36,175 nt of DNA from an uncultured Caryophanales bacterium (GTDB lineage: Bacteria > Bacillota_I > Bacilli_A > RF39 > UBA660): contig CAMOGG010000011.1 of assembly GCA_946614095.1 (NCBI GenBank), positions 1-36,175 of the forward strand. Reading direction: 5' to 3'. The position numbers were made by a program, and so were the translations under genes. Positions 3,662 to 28,505 of the stretch are shown here, one piece after another (the first letter of the stretch is position 1; every line of letters begins with the position of its first letter). Below the pieces are notes generated by a model, which did not search any database, was not told the origin of the DNA, and saw nothing but the letters and a program-made list of their open reading frames with translations.

Positions 3662-4579
3662 TTATCTCTTTGCTCTAGGAAAACTATGATAATAAACTTC
3701 TTTCAATCGATCAGTCGTGACATGTGTATAGATTTGAGTTGCTTTAATACTTTCATGTCCTAATAACTTTTGAACAGTAAGTAAATCACATCCTTCATTT
3801 AATAAATGTGTCGCAAAACTATGACGAATCATATGAGGAGAAATTTTCTTATGTATCTCTGTTTTTTTAATTAATTGATCTAAAATATAACGAACTCCTC
3901 TCTCTGTTAAAACACCACCATTATGATTTAAAAATAAATAAGGACTATTCCCTATATTTAATCTCAAATAACCATCACTTAAATATTCTTTTAAAGCATC
4001 TTCACAATATTCTCCATACGTAACAAATCTCTCTTTATTTCCTTTTCCAAGAATAATAATCTGTCTTAAAGATAAATTAATATCAGATACTTTAATCGAT
4101 ATTAATTCTCCTACTCGAACCCCAGTTGCATATAACATTTCTAATAATAATAAATCCCTTTGCCCAGTAGGAGTCCTTCTATCAGGAACAGAAAACAATT
4201 CTTCTAACTCATTATATTCAAAATATCTAGGAAGCTTCTTATCTTTTTTAGGTCCATTCACAAAAGAAAAAACATTACTTTTTACTTTTCCCTCATTTGC
4301 CAAATACTTATAAAAACTTCTTAAAGAACTTAATTTACGATTAATAGATGTATTATGATCTTTCTTTTCATCTTTTAAATACATTAAATAAAATCTTATA
4401 TCACTATATTCTACTGTTAAAAAAGATAAACTCTCTCTCCCCAACCATTCTAAATATTCTAAAATATCATGATAGTAATTCTCTATGGTATACAAAGAAT
4501 AATTTTTTTGGTACTGTAAATAATCTTTATATTGTTCTAATTCTACTGGTATATTATTTTTTTCGGTATTGATATCCAT
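3662..4579 (-). CDS. xerD: Site-specific tyrosine recombinase XerC/XerD type
   Basis: This is a 305-residue tyrosine recombinase of the size of Xer proteins, which resolve chromosome dimers at dif with FtsK. The N-terminal SAM-like core-binding domain spans about 15-100 (YTIENYYHDILEYLEWLG). The catalytic domain carries R155 (ATGVRVGEL), K179 (GKGNKER), H249-x-x-R252 (HMIRHSFATHLL), H275 (LLGHESIKATQIYTHV) and the nucleophile Y284, so all catalytic residues are present. Its start overlaps the 3' end of the 361-residue gene by 26 bases. The context is housekeeping with no phage genes. Which Xer paralogue this is cannot be decided from one copy. No dif-like site was recognised nearby. Confidence 0.85.
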   Translation of the reverse strand: MDINTEKNNIPVELEQYKDYLQYQKNYSLYTIENYYHDILEYLEWLGRESLSFLTVEYSDIRFYLMYLKDEKKDHNTSINRKLSSLRSFYKYLANEGKVKSNVFSFVNGPKKDKKLPRYFEYNELEELFSVPDRRTPTGQRDLLLLEMLYATGVRVGELISIKVSDINLSLRQIIILGKGNKERFVTYGEYCEDALKEYLSDGYLRLNIGNSPYLFLNHNGGVLTERGVRYILDQLIKKTEIHKKISPHMIRHSFATHLLNEGCDLLTVQKLLGHESIKATQIYTHVTTDRLKEVYYHSFPRAKR

Positions 4580-7205: not shown

Positions 7206-7547
7206 CTAACTATGATTTTTTTTTATTTCTATCCCCAAAACTCCATATTTTTTTTGCTTATCTTTTGGGTAATACACTTCCATATCTTTAGGATTAGCAA
7301 TTTCATCTTTTAAATAGCCCAAACATTCTGGATCAAAAAATTGATATAATTCATCAAAGCTAGAAAAATGGTGAATTTTAACAATTTTAGTCTGAAGAAT
7401 CTCATGACTAAACCGATTTTGAAATTCTATAATATCTTCTTCTTTTAAAACTCTTCTTTTTTCATCGTTTAAACGCATCTCAATCGTTTTAATTCCACTC
7501 TTAATCAGTTGAAAAGGTTCATCATGTAATCTCATTTTATATTTCAT
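7206..7547 (-). CDS. ASCH-domain protein
   Basis: The 113-residue protein is a stand-alone ASCH fold (PUA-like beta barrel), a family thought to bind RNA or act on modified nucleosides (YqfB-like). Typical features are MRLHDEPFQLIKSGIKTIEM at the N-terminus, RLNDEKRRVLKEEDIIEFQN in the middle and YGVLGIEI at the end. I chose the ATG at 7547 rather than the upstream in-frame ATG at 7577. The upstream codon lies next to the TATAAT (7566-7571) and would not be in the transcript, whereas GGTGATG precedes 7547. It is the first gene of a short operon with the 129-residue protein and the GNAT. Confidence 0.8.
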   Translation of the reverse strand: MKYKMRLHDEPFQLIKSGIKTIEMRLNDEKRRVLKEEDIIEFQNRFSHEILQTKIVKIHHFSSFDELYQFFDPECLGYLKDEIANPKDMEVYYPKDKQKKYGVLGIEIKKNHS

Positions 7548-7565
7548 TTTATCATCACCAATATC

Positions 7566-7571
7566 ATTATA
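7566..7571 (-). promoter_or_regulatory. -10 element (TATAAT) for ASCH operon
   Basis: TATAAT on the minus strand lies directly after the U-tract of the upstream terminator and about 19 bases before the ASCH start. The -35 is not convincing (T-rich). Confidence 0.5.
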
Positions 7572-7580
7572 ATACAAAAA

Positions 7581-7602
7581 GAAAAGAGAAAAAACTCCTT
7601 TC
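7581..7602 (-). terminator. Terminator of the 739-residue repeat-protein gene
   Basis: GAAAGGAG and CTCTTTTC pair (8 bp with one G-T) around a six-T loop, followed by TTTTTG on the minus strand, three bases after the stop codon. Confidence 0.7.
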
Positions 7603-7604
7603 CT

Positions 7605-9824
7605 TTATTTTATTTGATTAATCCCAGGTAATAAGACATCATAAATACGGCTTTCTCCAGAATTTTGGATATAGAGAGAAAAGCAATTCTTTTTAGGATT
7701 ATAGGAAACAGATTCTAACTCTCCATCTGAATTTACAATATAAGTTCCACGATACAATCCATCACTAGCACGATAAACATCAATTGCGTTCTTAACATTA
7801 GTTAAATCAACCTTTCCAGTTCCTTTTCCATCAACAGAAGCTCTAGGACTCCAACGTACTATCAAGACAAGGCCATGATAAGCTCCAATATCTTGTGCAA
7901 TCTCTTTAAATTGTTTTCGAAAGCCTGATATTTTTCGATTTAAATTAGAATCATAGATAGAAACATTCCATCCAGATACAGCATAAAAAAGATTATTGCT
8001 AGAATCATATGCTAATCCAGTAGGATTATAACGATTATTATTAATAGTAAGAGATTTTTCCGTAAGATGTAAAATACCACTACCTATATCAGAATATGGA
8101 AATACTTTAACTTTTTTATTAGTAGTCATAGAAACATAAACTTGCTTTGTATTGGTTTGATAAGCAATGGCATTTCCATGTCCCCAATAATTCTCTTTAT
8201 AAAATTTACGAACAACTTTTCCACTATCCGTATTGATTGCATATATATTGGCTTTTTTTTCATTAGAATCTCTCTTAGCTGCAATATAATAATTACCTGC
8301 CACAGAAAACCCTTGCGCATACTTAATATCTCCATCATGAGGAACAACAACATACTTTGACTTAGATAATTCTACAGTTCCTAAATAAAACTGCCTAGAA
8401 TCAACACTTTTTCTCCAATTAGCATATAAAGTAATTATACAATCTTTCTTGGTTGCTTTGCAAAATACACCTGAATTATAATCAGTATACTGACTATAGC
8501 TTTTTCCACTTCCATCTGGTTTTGTATTCCATTCATTACCATATTCTAAATAATATCCGCTCTTAATTAGATTTAAAGCATCCCTGTTATTACAATCCAT
8601 AAGGCCACTATTAGGTAACAGTTGCCCATACTTAACACTTGTCGTAGCCAAAGTTTGATTATTATAAATAAACTGATTATTAATATAAAAGTTTTTTCCA
8701 TGTGCATTAGAAAATAGAGTTCCACCATTGGCATGATACTTAATTGTTACTTTATAATTTGTTTGAGGATAAACCCAATTAACATATAAAACCACAGTAC
8801 AATCCTTCTTAGAAGCATTACAAAAATCACTTGCTTTATAAACAGTTTCCTGATTATAGCTTTTTCCACTACCATCCGGTTTTGTATTCCATTCAGCACC
8901 ATTTTTCACTATAAAACCATCTTTATTAATATTAATCCATCCAGAATTATTATAATTTACAAGACCTTCTTGTATCATATACTTATTGTATTCTATACTA
9001 TGAGTTGCATAATGATTATCATAATAAACATATCCACTTTTAATAGAAATATGAGGATCGTGTTTCCTAGCCAGACTTCCTCCATTAGCATGATACTTAA
9101 TTGTTACTGTATACTTATTCTTCGTAATTGTAATACGAACAGATGATTTTAATCCACTCTTACTTTTACCAGTAATGGTAACAGTACCAGTACTTACACC
9201 AACTACTTTTCCAGATGAATTGACAGTCGCAACCTTTGTATTAGAACTACTCCAAGTAATAGACTCCTTAGAAGATTCACTTGGTTTAAAAGTAGTTGTT
9301 AAAGAAATACTTTCTCCAACTTTTATCTGATTCTTAGATGCATAAATTGTAAAAGAAGTTGCTTTCTTAGTACTAGATGTTGAAATAGCTTTTCCACTAG
9401 AAATATCTATTCCACTAGTTTTCTTTTTATCATTCCAATTTGCATATAAATCAAAGGAATAAAATTCATCATTAATACCCATTACTTTTAATACATCCTG
9501 CATCTTATATGATTTAGAAATACTAAAGAAATAAGTTTTTCCATCCACTTGAGTATACCATTCTCTACCATTAACAAGACTAGTTCCATTTTTTTCTAAC
9601 TGAAAAGGAACACCACTAATACTATTAATTTTTTTTATCGTAACTTTCTCAGAATAATTAGCATAAAAATTACCATTATAACTCAAATATCCATAATCAC
9701 TCAATTCAAAACCAGATGTCTTTACTTTTCCTCCATTAGGATAAAAATAAAAATTAAACTCTTTAGCAGAAACTGATAAAATACCAACAAAAAAGCAGAA
9801 AAACAAAAAAGAAATTCTTTTCAT
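7605..9824 (-). CDS. Secreted protein with InlB-like repeats, a Big2 domain and a propeller-like C-terminus
   Basis: This 739-residue exported protein opens with a signal peptide (KRISFLFFCFFVGILSVSAK, likely cut after about residue 20). Domain order: a divergent InlB/Listeria-Bacteroides-type repeat (about 22-130, with FYPNGGKV and LYANW); a Big2 Ig-like domain (157-234, KVGESISLTTTF, SSSNTKVATVNSSGKVVGV); two well-conserved repeats (238-350 and 357-470, each with KYHANGG, EWNTKPDGSGKSY and a Cys pair before LY(V/A)NW); and a C-terminal region (478-739) whose YDSSNNLFYAVSG and NTDSGKVVRKFY units resemble a beta-propeller. No LPxTG or C-terminal membrane anchor is seen, so it may be released or held non-covalently. 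AGGGTGA precedes the ATG. The downstream gene in the array shares the repeat. Adhesion is plausible but inferred. Confidence 0.85.
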   Translation of the reverse strand: MKRISFLFFCFFVGILSVSAKEFNFYFYPNGGKVKTSGFELSDYGYLSYNGNFYANYSEKVTIKKINSISGVPFQLEKNGTSLVNGREWYTQVDGKTYFFSISKSYKMQDVLKVMGINDEFYSFDLYANWNDKKKTSGIDISSGKAISTSSTKKATSFTIYASKNQIKVGESISLTTTFKPSESSKESITWSSSNTKVATVNSSGKVVGVSTGTVTITGKSKSGLKSSVRITITKNKYTVTIKYHANGGSLARKHDPHISIKSGYVYYDNHYATHSIEYNKYMIQEGLVNYNNSGWININKDGFIVKNGAEWNTKPDGSGKSYNQETVYKASDFCNASKKDCTVVLYVNWVYPQTNYKVTIKYHANGGTLFSNAHGKNFYINNQFIYNNQTLATTSVKYGQLLPNSGLMDCNNRDALNLIKSGYYLEYGNEWNTKPDGSGKSYSQYTDYNSGVFCKATKKDCIITLYANWRKSVDSRQFYLGTVELSKSKYVVVPHDGDIKYAQGFSVAGNYYIAAKRDSNEKKANIYAINTDSGKVVRKFYKENYWGHGNAIAYQTNTKQVYVSMTTNKKVKVFPYSDIGSGILHLTEKSLTINNNRYNPTGLAYDSSNNLFYAVSGWNVSIYDSNLNRKISGFRKQFKEIAQDIGAYHGLVLIVRWSPRASVDGKGTGKVDLTNVKNAIDVYRASDGLYRGTYIVNSDGELESVSYNPKKNCFSLYIQNSGESRIYDVLLPGINQIK
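8415..9113 (-). repeat. Two tandem InlB-like protein repeats
   Basis: Residues 238-350 (8775-9113) and 357-470 (8415-8756) of the 739-residue protein align end to end. They share KYHANGG at the start, EWNTKPDGSGKSY in the middle and FCxAxKKDC before the final NW. A more divergent copy without the Cys pair lies at 9435-9761. A fourth copy, in the neighbouring nuclease-like gene, lies at 10631-10969. Confidence 0.85.
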
Positions 9825-9892
9825 TTAATCACCCTACCATATATAAATATATTATTACATATAATATACAATATCACAAGAACTAATATTTA

Positions 9893-11065
9893 TTATGATT
9901 TAATATAAAGAGTTGAAGATATAAAATTATGATCAGAATAAATACCATAAGTAAGAATGGTCTTTTCTGATGCAATATCAATACGACCTCTAGGTAAAAC
10001 ATATATAGCATCCATATAACTTTCCTTCCCATCAATACCATGACGTTTCATATCATGTGCCGCTACTTTAAATCCCAAAGGTAATAAAAACTTTTGATAA
10101 TAGTCAGCTGATATACGATTAAAATCACCTGTTAAAATTATAGGATTAGAATCTTTTTGAAGTAAATCGATAATATCTTTCAGATGAACTTCAGCACAAT
10201 CAATATCCTCTCCTCGATTATATGAAAGATGTGTATTATAATAAGATACTTTTTCTCCATGAATGGACAAAATTGCTTTTTGAATTGCTCTTCTCTCTCC
10301 ACAAGATGATAAGATAGTAGAAGTAGTAGAATAAAGAGGATACTTTGAAAGAATAGCATTTACATTAAAAGGACTTGTAAAATAATGATGACGTAAACCA
10401 ACCTCTTTTCCTATTTGCCGAATAATTTCATTAGACCGATTTCTCTTAGAAGAAGATTGATAATAATCCTTTGTTCTTGCTTCCTGTAATCCAATAATAT
10501 CAACAGGATGACTTTTGATAAATTCTGTAAATTTTTCAGGAGTTAATTCACACTGAAAAGAACTAGAACCACAATGAAAAAATCCCATATTAAAAGTTGC
10601 TACCTGAAATTTTGTAAGTTTTGCCTTTTTCCAATTAGCATACAAAGTCACTACACAATTTTTTTTAGAGGCATTACAAAAGTCACTTACCTGATAGACT
10701 TTATTTTGACTAAAACTCTTACCACTTCCGTCTGCTTTTGTATTCCACTCTTGATTTTTTCTAATCGTATATCCTACCCTCTCCAAATGAAGAAACTTCT
10801 CATTATTGTAATTTATCAAACCAGATAAAGGTAAAGAATCACTACCACGTATCTTTTGAATATCGATAGAATCATTAAGATAAACATGACCATCTAAAAC
10901 AGAAATATTATCACGATATGGAGTTGTTAAAACTCCCTGATTAACATGATAACGAATAAAAACATATTTTGGTTCTAATATAGTAGATTTATAAAAATAC
11001 CAAATAAAACTAATCGTAACAATTAAAACCAATGAAAAACAAATAAATAATAATTTCTTTTTCAT
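9893..11065 (-). CDS. Membrane-anchored InlB-like repeat fused to exonuclease/endonuclease/phosphatase domain
   Basis: The 390-residue protein has an N-terminal signal anchor (LLFICFSLVLIVTISFIWYF, about 5-24), one InlB-like repeat (about 33-145) and a DNase I/sphingomyelinase-type EEP domain (about 150-390). The metal and catalytic motifs are intact: ATFNMGF (N159), GLQEA (E195), NTHLS (H279), TGDFN (D314, N316), YMDAIYV (D352) and YSDHNF (D378-H379). The active site would face outside the cell, so extracellular DNA, a nucleotide or a phospholipid are the candidate substrates; the sequence does not choose between them. I used the ATG at 11065 because GAGGTG lies six bases upstream; a GTG nine bases earlier overlaps that site. 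Its repeat is most like those of the next gene. Confidence 0.85.
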   Translation of the reverse strand: MKKKLLFICFSLVLIVTISFIWYFYKSTILEPKYVFIRYHVNQGVLTTPYRDNISVLDGHVYLNDSIDIQKIRGSDSLPLSGLINYNNEKFLHLERVGYTIRKNQEWNTKADGSGKSFSQNKVYQVSDFCNASKKNCVVTLYANWKKAKLTKFQVATFNMGFFHCGSSSFQCELTPEKFTEFIKSHPVDIIGLQEARTKDYYQSSSKRNRSNEIIRQIGKEVGLRHHYFTSPFNVNAILSKYPLYSTTSTILSSCGERRAIQKAILSIHGEKVSYYNTHLSYNRGEDIDCAEVHLKDIIDLLQKDSNPIILTGDFNRISADYYQKFLLPLGFKVAAHDMKRHGIDGKESYMDAIYVLPRGRIDIASEKTILTYGIYSDHNFISSTLYIKS

Positions 11066-11108
11066 AAAAGACACCTCATTTATATCTCATACTAAAGGAA
11101 GACAAAAA

Positions 11109-11127
11109 AGAATGAGTAACTCATTCT
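11109..11127 (-). terminator. Terminator after nfnB
   Basis: AGAATGAG pairs with CTCATTCT around a three-base loop, followed on the minus strand by TTTTTT. It lies eight bases after the nfnB stop codon. Confidence 0.8.
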
Positions 11128-11134
11128 AATTTTT

Positions 11135-12493
11135 TTAAGCTAAAGATTCCATAATTTCTTTTGCTGCTTTTTTACCAGCTTCCATTGCAAGAATTACCGT
11201 AGCAGCACCAGTAACGGCATCTCCACCAGCATAAACGGAATCAAGAGAAGTTTTAGAACCATCTACGACAATTAACCCTCTATCACTAAGCTCTATATTA
11301 CTAGTTTTTAATGCCTCATGATTTGGACTAGTACCAAGTGCCATTACAACCATATCACAGTCCACTCTATGAAGAGATTCCTTATTTTCCGTAACACTGC
11401 GACGACCATCTTCTCCAGCTTCTCCAAGAATCATATCAACAACATTCATACCAACAACATTATTTTCCTCATCTGTTAATATCTCAACTGGATTTGTTAA
11501 AATATCAAATACAATTCCTTCATCAACTGCATGTTCAACTTCCATTTTACGAGCAGGTAATTCATCCAAGCTTCTACGATACATAATATGTGCATCGACC
11601 CCTAAACGTTTTAGAGAACGAACAGCATCCATCGCAACATTTCCTCCTCCAACAACATAAGCAGTTTTTACCTTTTTAACAGGAGTTTTAGAATCTTCCT
11701 TATACCCCCCCATTAAATTAATACGAGTTAAAATTTCGTTAGCAGAAAAAACTTGATTAGCATCCTCACCAGGAATTCCCATAAACTTAGGAAGTCCTGC
11801 TCCTGTGCCCAAGAACACAGCATCATACTCTTTCTGTAAATCAGGAATTGTAATAGCATTACCAACAGGAACATCAGTCTGAATATGAACTCCTAATTTC
11901 TTTAAACTATCTACTTCTTTTTGAACAATCGTTTTTGGAAGACGAAATTCTGGAATACCATAAGTTAAAACACCACCAGCTTTATGTAATACTTCAAATA
12001 TAGTAACATCATAACCAGCTTTTGCCAAATCTCCAGCACAAGTAAGTCCTGCTGGTCCACTACCAACAATAGCAACCCTCTTCCCATTTTTAGGAGCAGG
12101 ATTTACAGAATTAAAACCATTTAAAATAGCTTGATCGGCAACATATCTTTCTAAAGATCCAATAGAAATAGCATCTCCCTTAAGTCCTTTAATACACATT
12201 GCTTCACATTGTTTTTCTTGTGGACAAACTCTTCCACAAACTGCAGGTAGTGAAGATGACTCAGAAATAATTTGATATGCCTCTTCCAAATGATTTTCTT
12301 TAATCGCTTTAATAAAATTAGGAATAGCAATGCTAACAGGACATCCCTTCATACATCTTGGATTCACACATTGTAAACATCTAGAAGCTTCTTTTAAAGC
12401 CTCTTCATCATTATATCCAAATTCTACTTCTTCAAAATTATGAATTCTCTCTTCCGCTTTTTGTAATCTACCTTTTACTTTTTGATCATTCAT
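11135..12493 (-). CDS. nfnB: NfnB, large subunit of electron-bifurcating ferredoxin:NADP+ oxidoreductase (GltD-like)
   Basis: The 452-residue flavoprotein matches the GltD/NfnB family. An N-terminal ferredoxin-like region has eight cysteines (39, 42, 47, 51 and 86, 90, 96, 100) for two 4Fe-4S clusters. An FAD Rossmann motif VAIVGSGPAGLTCAG starts near 140 and a second dinucleotide motif AYVVGGGNVAMDAVRSL follows in the second half. The C-terminal MALGTSPN and VYAGGDAVTGAATVILAM are typical. Alone it could be annotated as glutamate synthase small subunit. Lying ten bases after an NfnA-type gene, with no glutamate synthase large subunit beside it, it is better read as NfnB, which couples NADH and reduced ferredoxin oxidation to NADP+ reduction. 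A sulfide dehydrogenase (SudAB) annotation is the main alternative. The start has a GGAGGG site. Confidence 0.88.
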   Translation of the reverse strand: MNDQKVKGRLQKAEERIHNFEEVEFGYNDEEALKEASRCLQCVNPRCMKGCPVSIAIPNFIKAIKENHLEEAYQIISESSSLPAVCGRVCPQEKQCEAMCIKGLKGDAISIGSLERYVADQAILNGFNSVNPAPKNGKRVAIVGSGPAGLTCAGDLAKAGYDVTIFEVLHKAGGVLTYGIPEFRLPKTIVQKEVDSLKKLGVHIQTDVPVGNAITIPDLQKEYDAVFLGTGAGLPKFMGIPGEDANQVFSANEILTRINLMGGYKEDSKTPVKKVKTAYVVGGGNVAMDAVRSLKRLGVDAHIMYRRSLDELPARKMEVEHAVDEGIVFDILTNPVEILTDEENNVVGMNVVDMILGEAGEDGRRSVTENKESLHRVDCDMVVMALGTSPNHEALKTSNIELSDRGLIVVDGSKTSLDSVYAGGDAVTGAATVILAMEAGKKAAKEIMESLA

Positions 12494-28294: not shown

Positions 28295-28505
28295 AAAAAA
28301 TAACTATAAACATAAGGACGATTTCTCGCGGTACCACCTTATTTTATAGTTATTACTATACACTTTCCTCTTTTAACGCAAGAAATACGCTTATGATTAA
28401 TAAGAACTCCACAGGCGAATTCATAGACTATTAATGAGTATTTTCACCAAACATACTCTCTCTACAATTAAATCATCTACTACTACTCCTCTTCACAGTC
28501 GATAA
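28295..28505 (-). promoter_or_regulatory. T-box riboswitch (tRNA-Phe) before the HAD-pheS-pheT operon
   Basis: A T-box leader senses uncharged tRNA. The conserved box AAGGTGGTACCGCG is at 28327-28340. The competing terminator pairs 28337-28354 with 28299-28317 and is followed by eight T. Upstream is a long stem I region with a GGTGAAA apical part. A TTC codon within TGAATTCG (28417-28419) fits a Phe specifier, followed by a purine as usual. The specifier assignment is by position and operon content; I did not fold the RNA. Confidence 0.9.

What the first reader, a model, noticed from the sequence alone, without database searches (positions are those of the whole stretch)
7605..11065. Paired InlB-repeat proteins, one fused to an EEP nuclease-like domain
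Two adjacent genes share an unusual long InlB-like repeat (about 112 residues) with EWNTKxDGSGKS and a Cys pair before the final NW. One protein has three copies plus Big2 and a propeller-like end. The other has one copy behind a membrane anchor, followed by an intact DNase I/sphingomyelinase-type catalytic domain facing outward. A repeat fused to such an enzyme suggests a surface hydrolase positioned by the repeat. The shared repeat may allow the two proteins to work on the same ligand.
Basis: partly seen in the sequence, partly recalled or inferred. Interest (0 to 1): 0.65.

Follow-up and report, generated by a model that had tools for sequence, protein, structure and literature searches.

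The report
Head-swapping secreted proteins, one nuclease-like
A membrane-anchored, outward-facing enzyme of the DNase I-like superfamily and its propeller-tipped neighbour belong to a family of secreted bacterial proteins that keep one stalk but swap the working domain at its tip, so the shared repeat looks like a common mount rather than a common target.

Summary
Gene A (7605-9824): signal peptide, Cys-less long repeat, Big_2, two Cys-pair long repeats, SGL propeller. Gene B (9893-11065): membrane anchor, one long repeat, and an EEP (Exo_endo_phos) domain with all canonical catalytic residues. The 111-residue repeat is an InlB B-repeat (Flg_new) relative with an N-terminal extension; in the samples searched it was found only in this bacterial family.

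The inferred shared ligand is not supported. The stalk is a generic platform: in this genome and in congeners it carries unrelated heads (ComEC-like metallo-beta-lactamase, GH114, acetylesterase, propellers, others), and EEP heads also sit on stalks without the long repeat. Between this genome and its nearest relative, one orthologous gene has had its head replaced in place, with the break at the end of the repeat. The gltD-ASCH site holding A and B is empty in two congeners.

B is most likely a surface-tethered phosphodiesterase. A nuclease scavenging nucleotides is my best guess (purH found in none of 39 genus genomes; TDP2 among the nearest structures), but sphingomyelinases and a mannosyl-6-phosphatase fit the fold almost as well, so the substrate is open. 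This is C-terminal displacement, known from Rhs and polymorphic toxins, on a new stalk with different heads.

The parts
9893..11074 (-). Gene B: membrane anchor + long repeat + EEP (ATG start at 11065 likelier than GTG 11074)
10988..11065 (-). B: N-terminal membrane anchor (MKKKLLFICFSLVLIVTISFIWYFYK), predicted N-in/C-out, no obvious signal-peptidase site
   Evidence: sequence; AF2 helix 2-32; orientation inferred from the Lys cluster
10631..10963 (-). B: long InlB-like repeat with Cys pair
   Evidence: HMM
9896..10618 (-). B: EEP catalytic head, all canonical residues present
   Evidence: PF03372 5e-11; invariants; structural Z up to 22.8 to solved EEP enzymes
7605..9824 (-). Gene A: secreted stalk with propeller head
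9765..9824 (-). A: signal peptide (MKRISFLFFCFFVGILSVSA/KE)
   Evidence: sequence; inference
9435..9758 (-). A: N-terminal Cys-less long repeat
9150..9362 (-). A: Big_2 domain
   Evidence: PF02368 2.6e-12
8775..9107 (-). A: long repeat 2 (Cys pair)
8415..8750 (-). A: long repeat 3 (Cys pair)
7608..8414 (-). A: SGL/NHL-type beta-propeller head
   Evidence: PF08450 1.8e-7, above cut-off; head 73% identical in G481
11109..11127 (-). terminator-like hairpin between gltD and B (B likely has its own promoter)
   Evidence: 3 terminator-like sites found in the region against 1.0 expected
7577..7606 (-). terminator-like hairpin after A
11135..12493 (-). gltD-like oxidoreductase, border of the insertion site (upstream of B in the direction of transcription)
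7206..7577 (-). ASCH-domain gene, other border of the insertion site

Best explanation
A and B are two members of a family of exported proteins in one uncultured Bacilli-type genus. The family is built as a fixed stalk (signal peptide or anchor, long InlB-like repeats, Big_2) plus an exchangeable C-terminal head. Heads are exchanged by recombination, with sharp breaks seen after the last repeat and in other cases further upstream in the stalk, and copies often sit in tandem arrays at chromosomal sites such as gltD-ASCH. B is the membrane-tethered version with an EEP phosphodiesterase head held outside the cell; its extra cysteines suggest disulphides. It probably cleaves phosphodiester or phosphomonoester bonds in extracellular material; my preferred substrate is nucleic acid or nucleotides, feeding a purine-auxotrophic cell. 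Shown by computation: domain composition, intact catalytic residues, EEP fold, stalk sharing, an in-place head swap, array presence and absence, no purH found in the genus. Inferred: export and topology, disulphides, recombination mechanism, substrate (nucleic acid or nucleotide about 0.5; phosphorylated glycan or teichoic-type polymer about 0.25; phospholipid about 0.1; other about 0.15).
For: Stalks are similar in 246 of 253 protein pairs, heads in 24. In-place swap between G000 C15 and G481 C3: flanks 86-91% nt, stalk 84% aa, identity falling from 28/30 to 4/30 just after ...LYVNW. In G479 an EEP protein and an unrelated-head protein share 82% nt over the first ~720 nt. The N-terminal repeat tree needs 5 changes of genome but 11 of head. 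Heads assigned by Pfam or NCBIfam: ComEC-like MBL 5.5e-18, GH114 1.6e-24, SASA 8.5e-7, EEP 1.1e-9, SGL 1.8e-7. EEP head on other stalks in other genera. Catalytic residues invariant. EEP model matches TDP2 at Z 22-23, Bacteroides EEPs 3g6s and 3mpr at about 22, nSMase 22.1, a mannosyl-6-phosphatase 21.5. purH in 0 of 39 genus genomes while the control rings in 13 of 14. gltD and ASCH are adjacent without an array in G477 and G480; occupied in G000, and both edges of an occupied site are seen in G481.
Against: No biochemical data; the EEP fold does not fix the substrate. The genomes are drafts in many contigs: the 100% identical stretches in G481 C54 could be assembly artefacts. The tree of the last repeat does not separate by genome (11 genome against 10 head changes), so the last repeat often travels with its head and the break is not always at one point. 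B lacks the N-terminal half of the stalk, so it is a shortened variant. ATCase is present in this genome, so any auxotrophy is for purines only, and it rests on one gene family. A-type proteins have no recognised anchor and may be freely secreted.
Confidence: 0.68

Rival explanations
1. One reading: the repeat is a ligand-binding module that brings the EEP enzyme and the propeller protein to the same surface ligand, and the two work as a pair.
For: The two genes are adjacent with a 68-nt gap and no terminator-like site found between them; both carry the Cys-pair repeat.
Against: The same repeat is on at least six further head types and on pilin-like proteins; relatives of the EEP head lack the repeat or the propeller partner; in G479 the EEP genes have a different neighbour.
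Confidence: 0.12
2. Polymorphic-toxin-like system: the conserved stalk delivers variable C-terminal toxins (EEP nuclease, MBL nuclease) to competitors.
For: Conserved N-terminus with displaced C-terminus is the signature of Rhs and polymorphic toxins (PMC2935791, PMC3482391); an EEP and a ComEC-like MBL could both be nucleases.
Against: No room for an immunity gene between B and A (68-nt gap) and none evident beside other members (by eye); several heads are GH114, acetylesterase or propeller types; the N-terminus is a plain signal peptide or anchor.
Confidence: 0.1
3. B is a glycan or teichoic-acid phosphatase/phosphodiesterase working alongside the glycan-active heads rather than a nuclease.
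For: A Bacteroides mannosyl-6-phosphatase (4c1r) matches the model at Z 21.5; sibling heads include GH114 and SASA types.
Against: TDP2, nSMase, nocturnin and sugar-phosphatase EEPs lie within about 2 Z units, so the fold does not favour it; the sequence profile ranks 3g6s, 3teb and TDP2 first.
Confidence: 0.25

Closest known systems
Exo_endo_phos superfamily enzymes (TDP2 catalytic domain; BVU_0621 3g6s; neutral sphingomyelinase; DNase I-like)
   Same: Fold (Z about 19-23) and the canonical catalytic residues
   Different: 13-22% identity in the structural alignments; extra cysteines; predicted export on a repeat stalk; substrate untested
SpnA / SsnA surface nucleases of streptococci (PMC10818452)
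   Same: C-terminal endo/exonuclease domain displayed on the surface behind N-terminal modules
   Different: SpnA has OB-fold DNA-binding modules and is cell-wall associated; B has one InlB-like repeat, an N-terminal membrane anchor and no visible C-terminal sorting signal
InlB B-repeat (Flg_new, PF09479)
   Same: C-terminal half: GY..W.TK.DG.G.SY....LYANW
   Different: About 50 extra residues on the N-terminal side, a Cys pair, no Pfam hit on the window copies; found only in the window's own family in a class-wide sample
Rhs / polymorphic toxin C-terminal displacement (PMC2935791, PMC3482391)
   Same: Conserved N-terminal carrier, C-terminus replaced at a sharp boundary
   Different: No immunity genes seen and no Rhs-type carrier; heads include a glycosidase, an esterase and propellers

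Membership tests
Exo_endo_phos (PF03372) | Profile score over curated cut-off | tested here: met
   43.1 bits against 24.5
Exo_endo_phos (PF03372) | Catalytic N, E, H, D/N, D, DH residues | tested here: met
   Invariant in six surface EEPs
Exo_endo_phos (PF03372) | EEP fold | tested here: met
   AF2 model, Z 19-23 to many EEP structures over about 220 residues
Neutral sphingomyelinase | Closest by sequence or fold among EEP enzymes | tested here: inconclusive
   Human nSMase Z 22.1, bacterial SMases 19-20, TDP2 22.8; differences too small to decide
Neutral sphingomyelinase | Hydrolysis of sphingomyelin | not testable with these tools
   Needs an assay
InlB B-repeat (Flg_new PF09479) | Pfam match over cut-off | tested here: not met
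   No Flg_new hit on A or B at E<=1
InlB B-repeat (Flg_new PF09479) | Profile-level homology to classic repeats | tested here: met
   hhalign 95% over 40 columns with nine classic copies; C-terminal part only
Polymorphic toxin / Rhs | Conserved N-terminus with swapped C-terminus | tested here: met
Polymorphic toxin / Rhs | Immunity gene directly downstream of the toxin head | tested here: not met
   68-nt gap between B and A; no small gene directly after B
SpnA-type surface nuclease | OB-fold DNA-binding modules before the nuclease | tested here: inconclusive
   B has a long InlB-like repeat there and no OB hit in Pfam; the fold of the repeat was not compared with OB folds

The most novel reading that the evidence does not exclude
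A small-genome uncultured lineage runs a head-swapping display system: a lineage-specific InlB-like stalk on which EEP, ComEC-like MBL, glycosidase, esterase and propeller heads are exchanged in tandem arrays and in place between close species, giving fast turnover of surface or secreted enzymes without immunity genes.
Probability: 0.5. Interest if true: 0.7.

Novelty: new variant of a known kind. Interest (0 to 1): 0.5.

Why it matters
It turns an isolated two-gene curiosity into a recognisable family with one rule: constant stalk, exchangeable head. If right, it shows one way in which small-genome, uncultured bacteria change their exported enzymes, and gives a handle (the 111-aa repeat) for finding unannotated exported enzymes, some with heads that no family model names.

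Tried and rejected
Shared-ligand pairing of A and B: rejected as a general rule, since heads, partners and stalks vary independently. Immunity genes around family members: none evident by eye. Viral-contig scan for the EEP head: no relative. AlphaFold2 of A from a single sequence: pLDDT 32, unusable, so the propeller rests on Pfam. Inverted repeats for a phase-variation switch around A and B: only imperfect or AT-rich pairs, nothing convincing. Literature searches found no paper describing the architecture, but only open-licence PMC papers are searched. My working label 'helv' in the scripts for the 440-aa head of C15 is a memory-based guess that neither Pfam nor NCBIfam supports; treat it as unassigned. 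The VIA-align list did not cover the repeat, so its fold was not tested.

Full report
What is there. The window is contig 11 of a 1.38-Mb draft genome, 76% complete. EEP relatives from the same family are MAGs deposited as uncultured Erysipelotrichaceae or Firmicutes, so I infer an uncultured Bacilli lineage, possibly the order RF39, which is described as thin-walled (PMC10868615); the order itself was not tested. Genes B and A lie in one direction, 68 nt apart, between a gltD-like gene and an ASCH gene, with terminator-like hairpins on both sides and none found between them.

Anatomy. A has a signal peptide, a Cys-less long repeat, Big_2, two Cys-pair long repeats and a C-terminal SGL propeller. 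B has an N-terminal membrane helix, one Cys-pair repeat and an EEP domain. B probably starts at ATG 11065 behind GAGGTG. The catalytic set (N162, E198, H282, D317, N319, D355, D381, H382 in GTG numbering) is invariant in six surface EEPs. The AlphaFold2 model (mean pLDDT 75.5, higher in much of the head) aligns over residues 151-393 with TDP2 (Z 22.8), bacterial EEPs, human neutral sphingomyelinase (22.1), a mannosyl-6-phosphatase (21.5) and bacterial sphingomyelinases (about 19.5). By sequence profile the nearest solved structures are 3g6s, 3teb and TDP2. The fold is secure; the substrate is not.

The repeat. Forty-eight distinct copies align over 111 columns. The C-terminal part matches classic InlB B-repeats by profile comparison (95% probability over 40 columns); the first ~55 residues are an extension. 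There are two subtypes: the first copy after the signal peptide lacks the Cys pair, all other copies have it. In a class-wide sample of 395 genomes only four match at E 1e-10, all in the window's own family.

A family with exchangeable heads. In the window's own genome the long repeat also carries a ComEC-like metallo-beta-lactamase (C5) and an unassigned ~450-aa C-terminal part (C15), and occurs in two proteins with a type IV prepilin N-terminus (C4, C2). In congeners the same stalk carries GH114, SASA esterase, SGNH-like, TIM-barrel-like, CHAP-like, MBL, EEP and propeller heads, often in tandem arrays; the SGNH-, TIM- and CHAP-like labels are by eye from sequence motifs. Stalks are similar in 246 of 253 pairs, heads in 24. 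The clearest case is the C15 gene and its orthologue in the closest relative, G481: flanking genes 86-91% identical in DNA, stalk 84% in protein, then identity drops to background right after ...LYVNW, the end of the repeat, and the heads are unrelated. In G479 an EEP protein and its array neighbour share 82% DNA identity over the first ~720 nt and then differ. The N-terminal repeat follows the genome rather than the head (5 against 11 changes), while the last repeat is mixed, so the exchange point varies.

The EEP head elsewhere. G479 has two tandem EEP members at about 50% identity with the full stalk. Genomes of other genera (G115, G229, G092) have the same head on a membrane anchor with Big_2 or classic InlB repeats, at unrelated loci. 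So the head recurs with changing stalks, and a propeller partner is not part of the arrangement.

The site. gltD and ASCH are directly adjacent in G477 and G480, while G000 has B and A between them and G481 has three family genes next to ASCH on one contig and another starting after gltD at the end of a second contig. The array is therefore an insertion or deletion at a fixed site. In the other congeners read, no ASCH homologue was found in the stretch taken downstream of gltD.

How it most likely works. B is held in the membrane with its head outside, raised by one repeat, and cleaves a phosphoester in extracellular material. Because purH was found in none of 39 genus genomes (control 13 of 14), salvage of purines from nucleic acid is a reasonable purpose; ATCase is present here, so pyrimidines may be made. 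This part is inference. The nearest functional analogue I know is SpnA, a surface nuclease with N-terminal DNA-binding modules (PMC10818452).

Caveats. The genomes are drafts and unnamed; identical stretches in G481 C54 may be assembly artefacts. Head labels rest on family models where given, and on no assay. Absence of a published description was tested only in open-licence PMC papers.

Noticed in passing
G000 contigs C4 (L066:918-3209) and C2 (L067:615-3875): Proteins with a type IV prepilin N-terminal methylation motif followed by classic and long InlB-like repeats; similar ones in G157, G123 and G209.
   Followed up: partly
L071:5980-7212 (G234): The propeller head of A recurs (38% identity) on a protein whose N-terminus weakly resembles a T4SS-type pilin or DUF4870 membrane segment.
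   Followed up: no
L065:2029-4470 and L179:4523-6919: A C-terminal part of about 450 aa shared at 52% between two species with no Pfam match beyond Big_2; the window-genome copy has no NCBIfam match either.
   Followed up: no
L064:2-2572: ComEC-like metallo-beta-lactamase head on the same stalk (TIGR00361, 5.5e-18); possible second exported nuclease.
   Followed up: partly
window 28311-28505: T-box leader on the minus strand (117.6 bits).
   Followed up: no
window 3662-4579: Tyrosine recombinase with XerC/D-like domains about 3 kb downstream of gene A; no link to head exchange shown.
   Followed up: no
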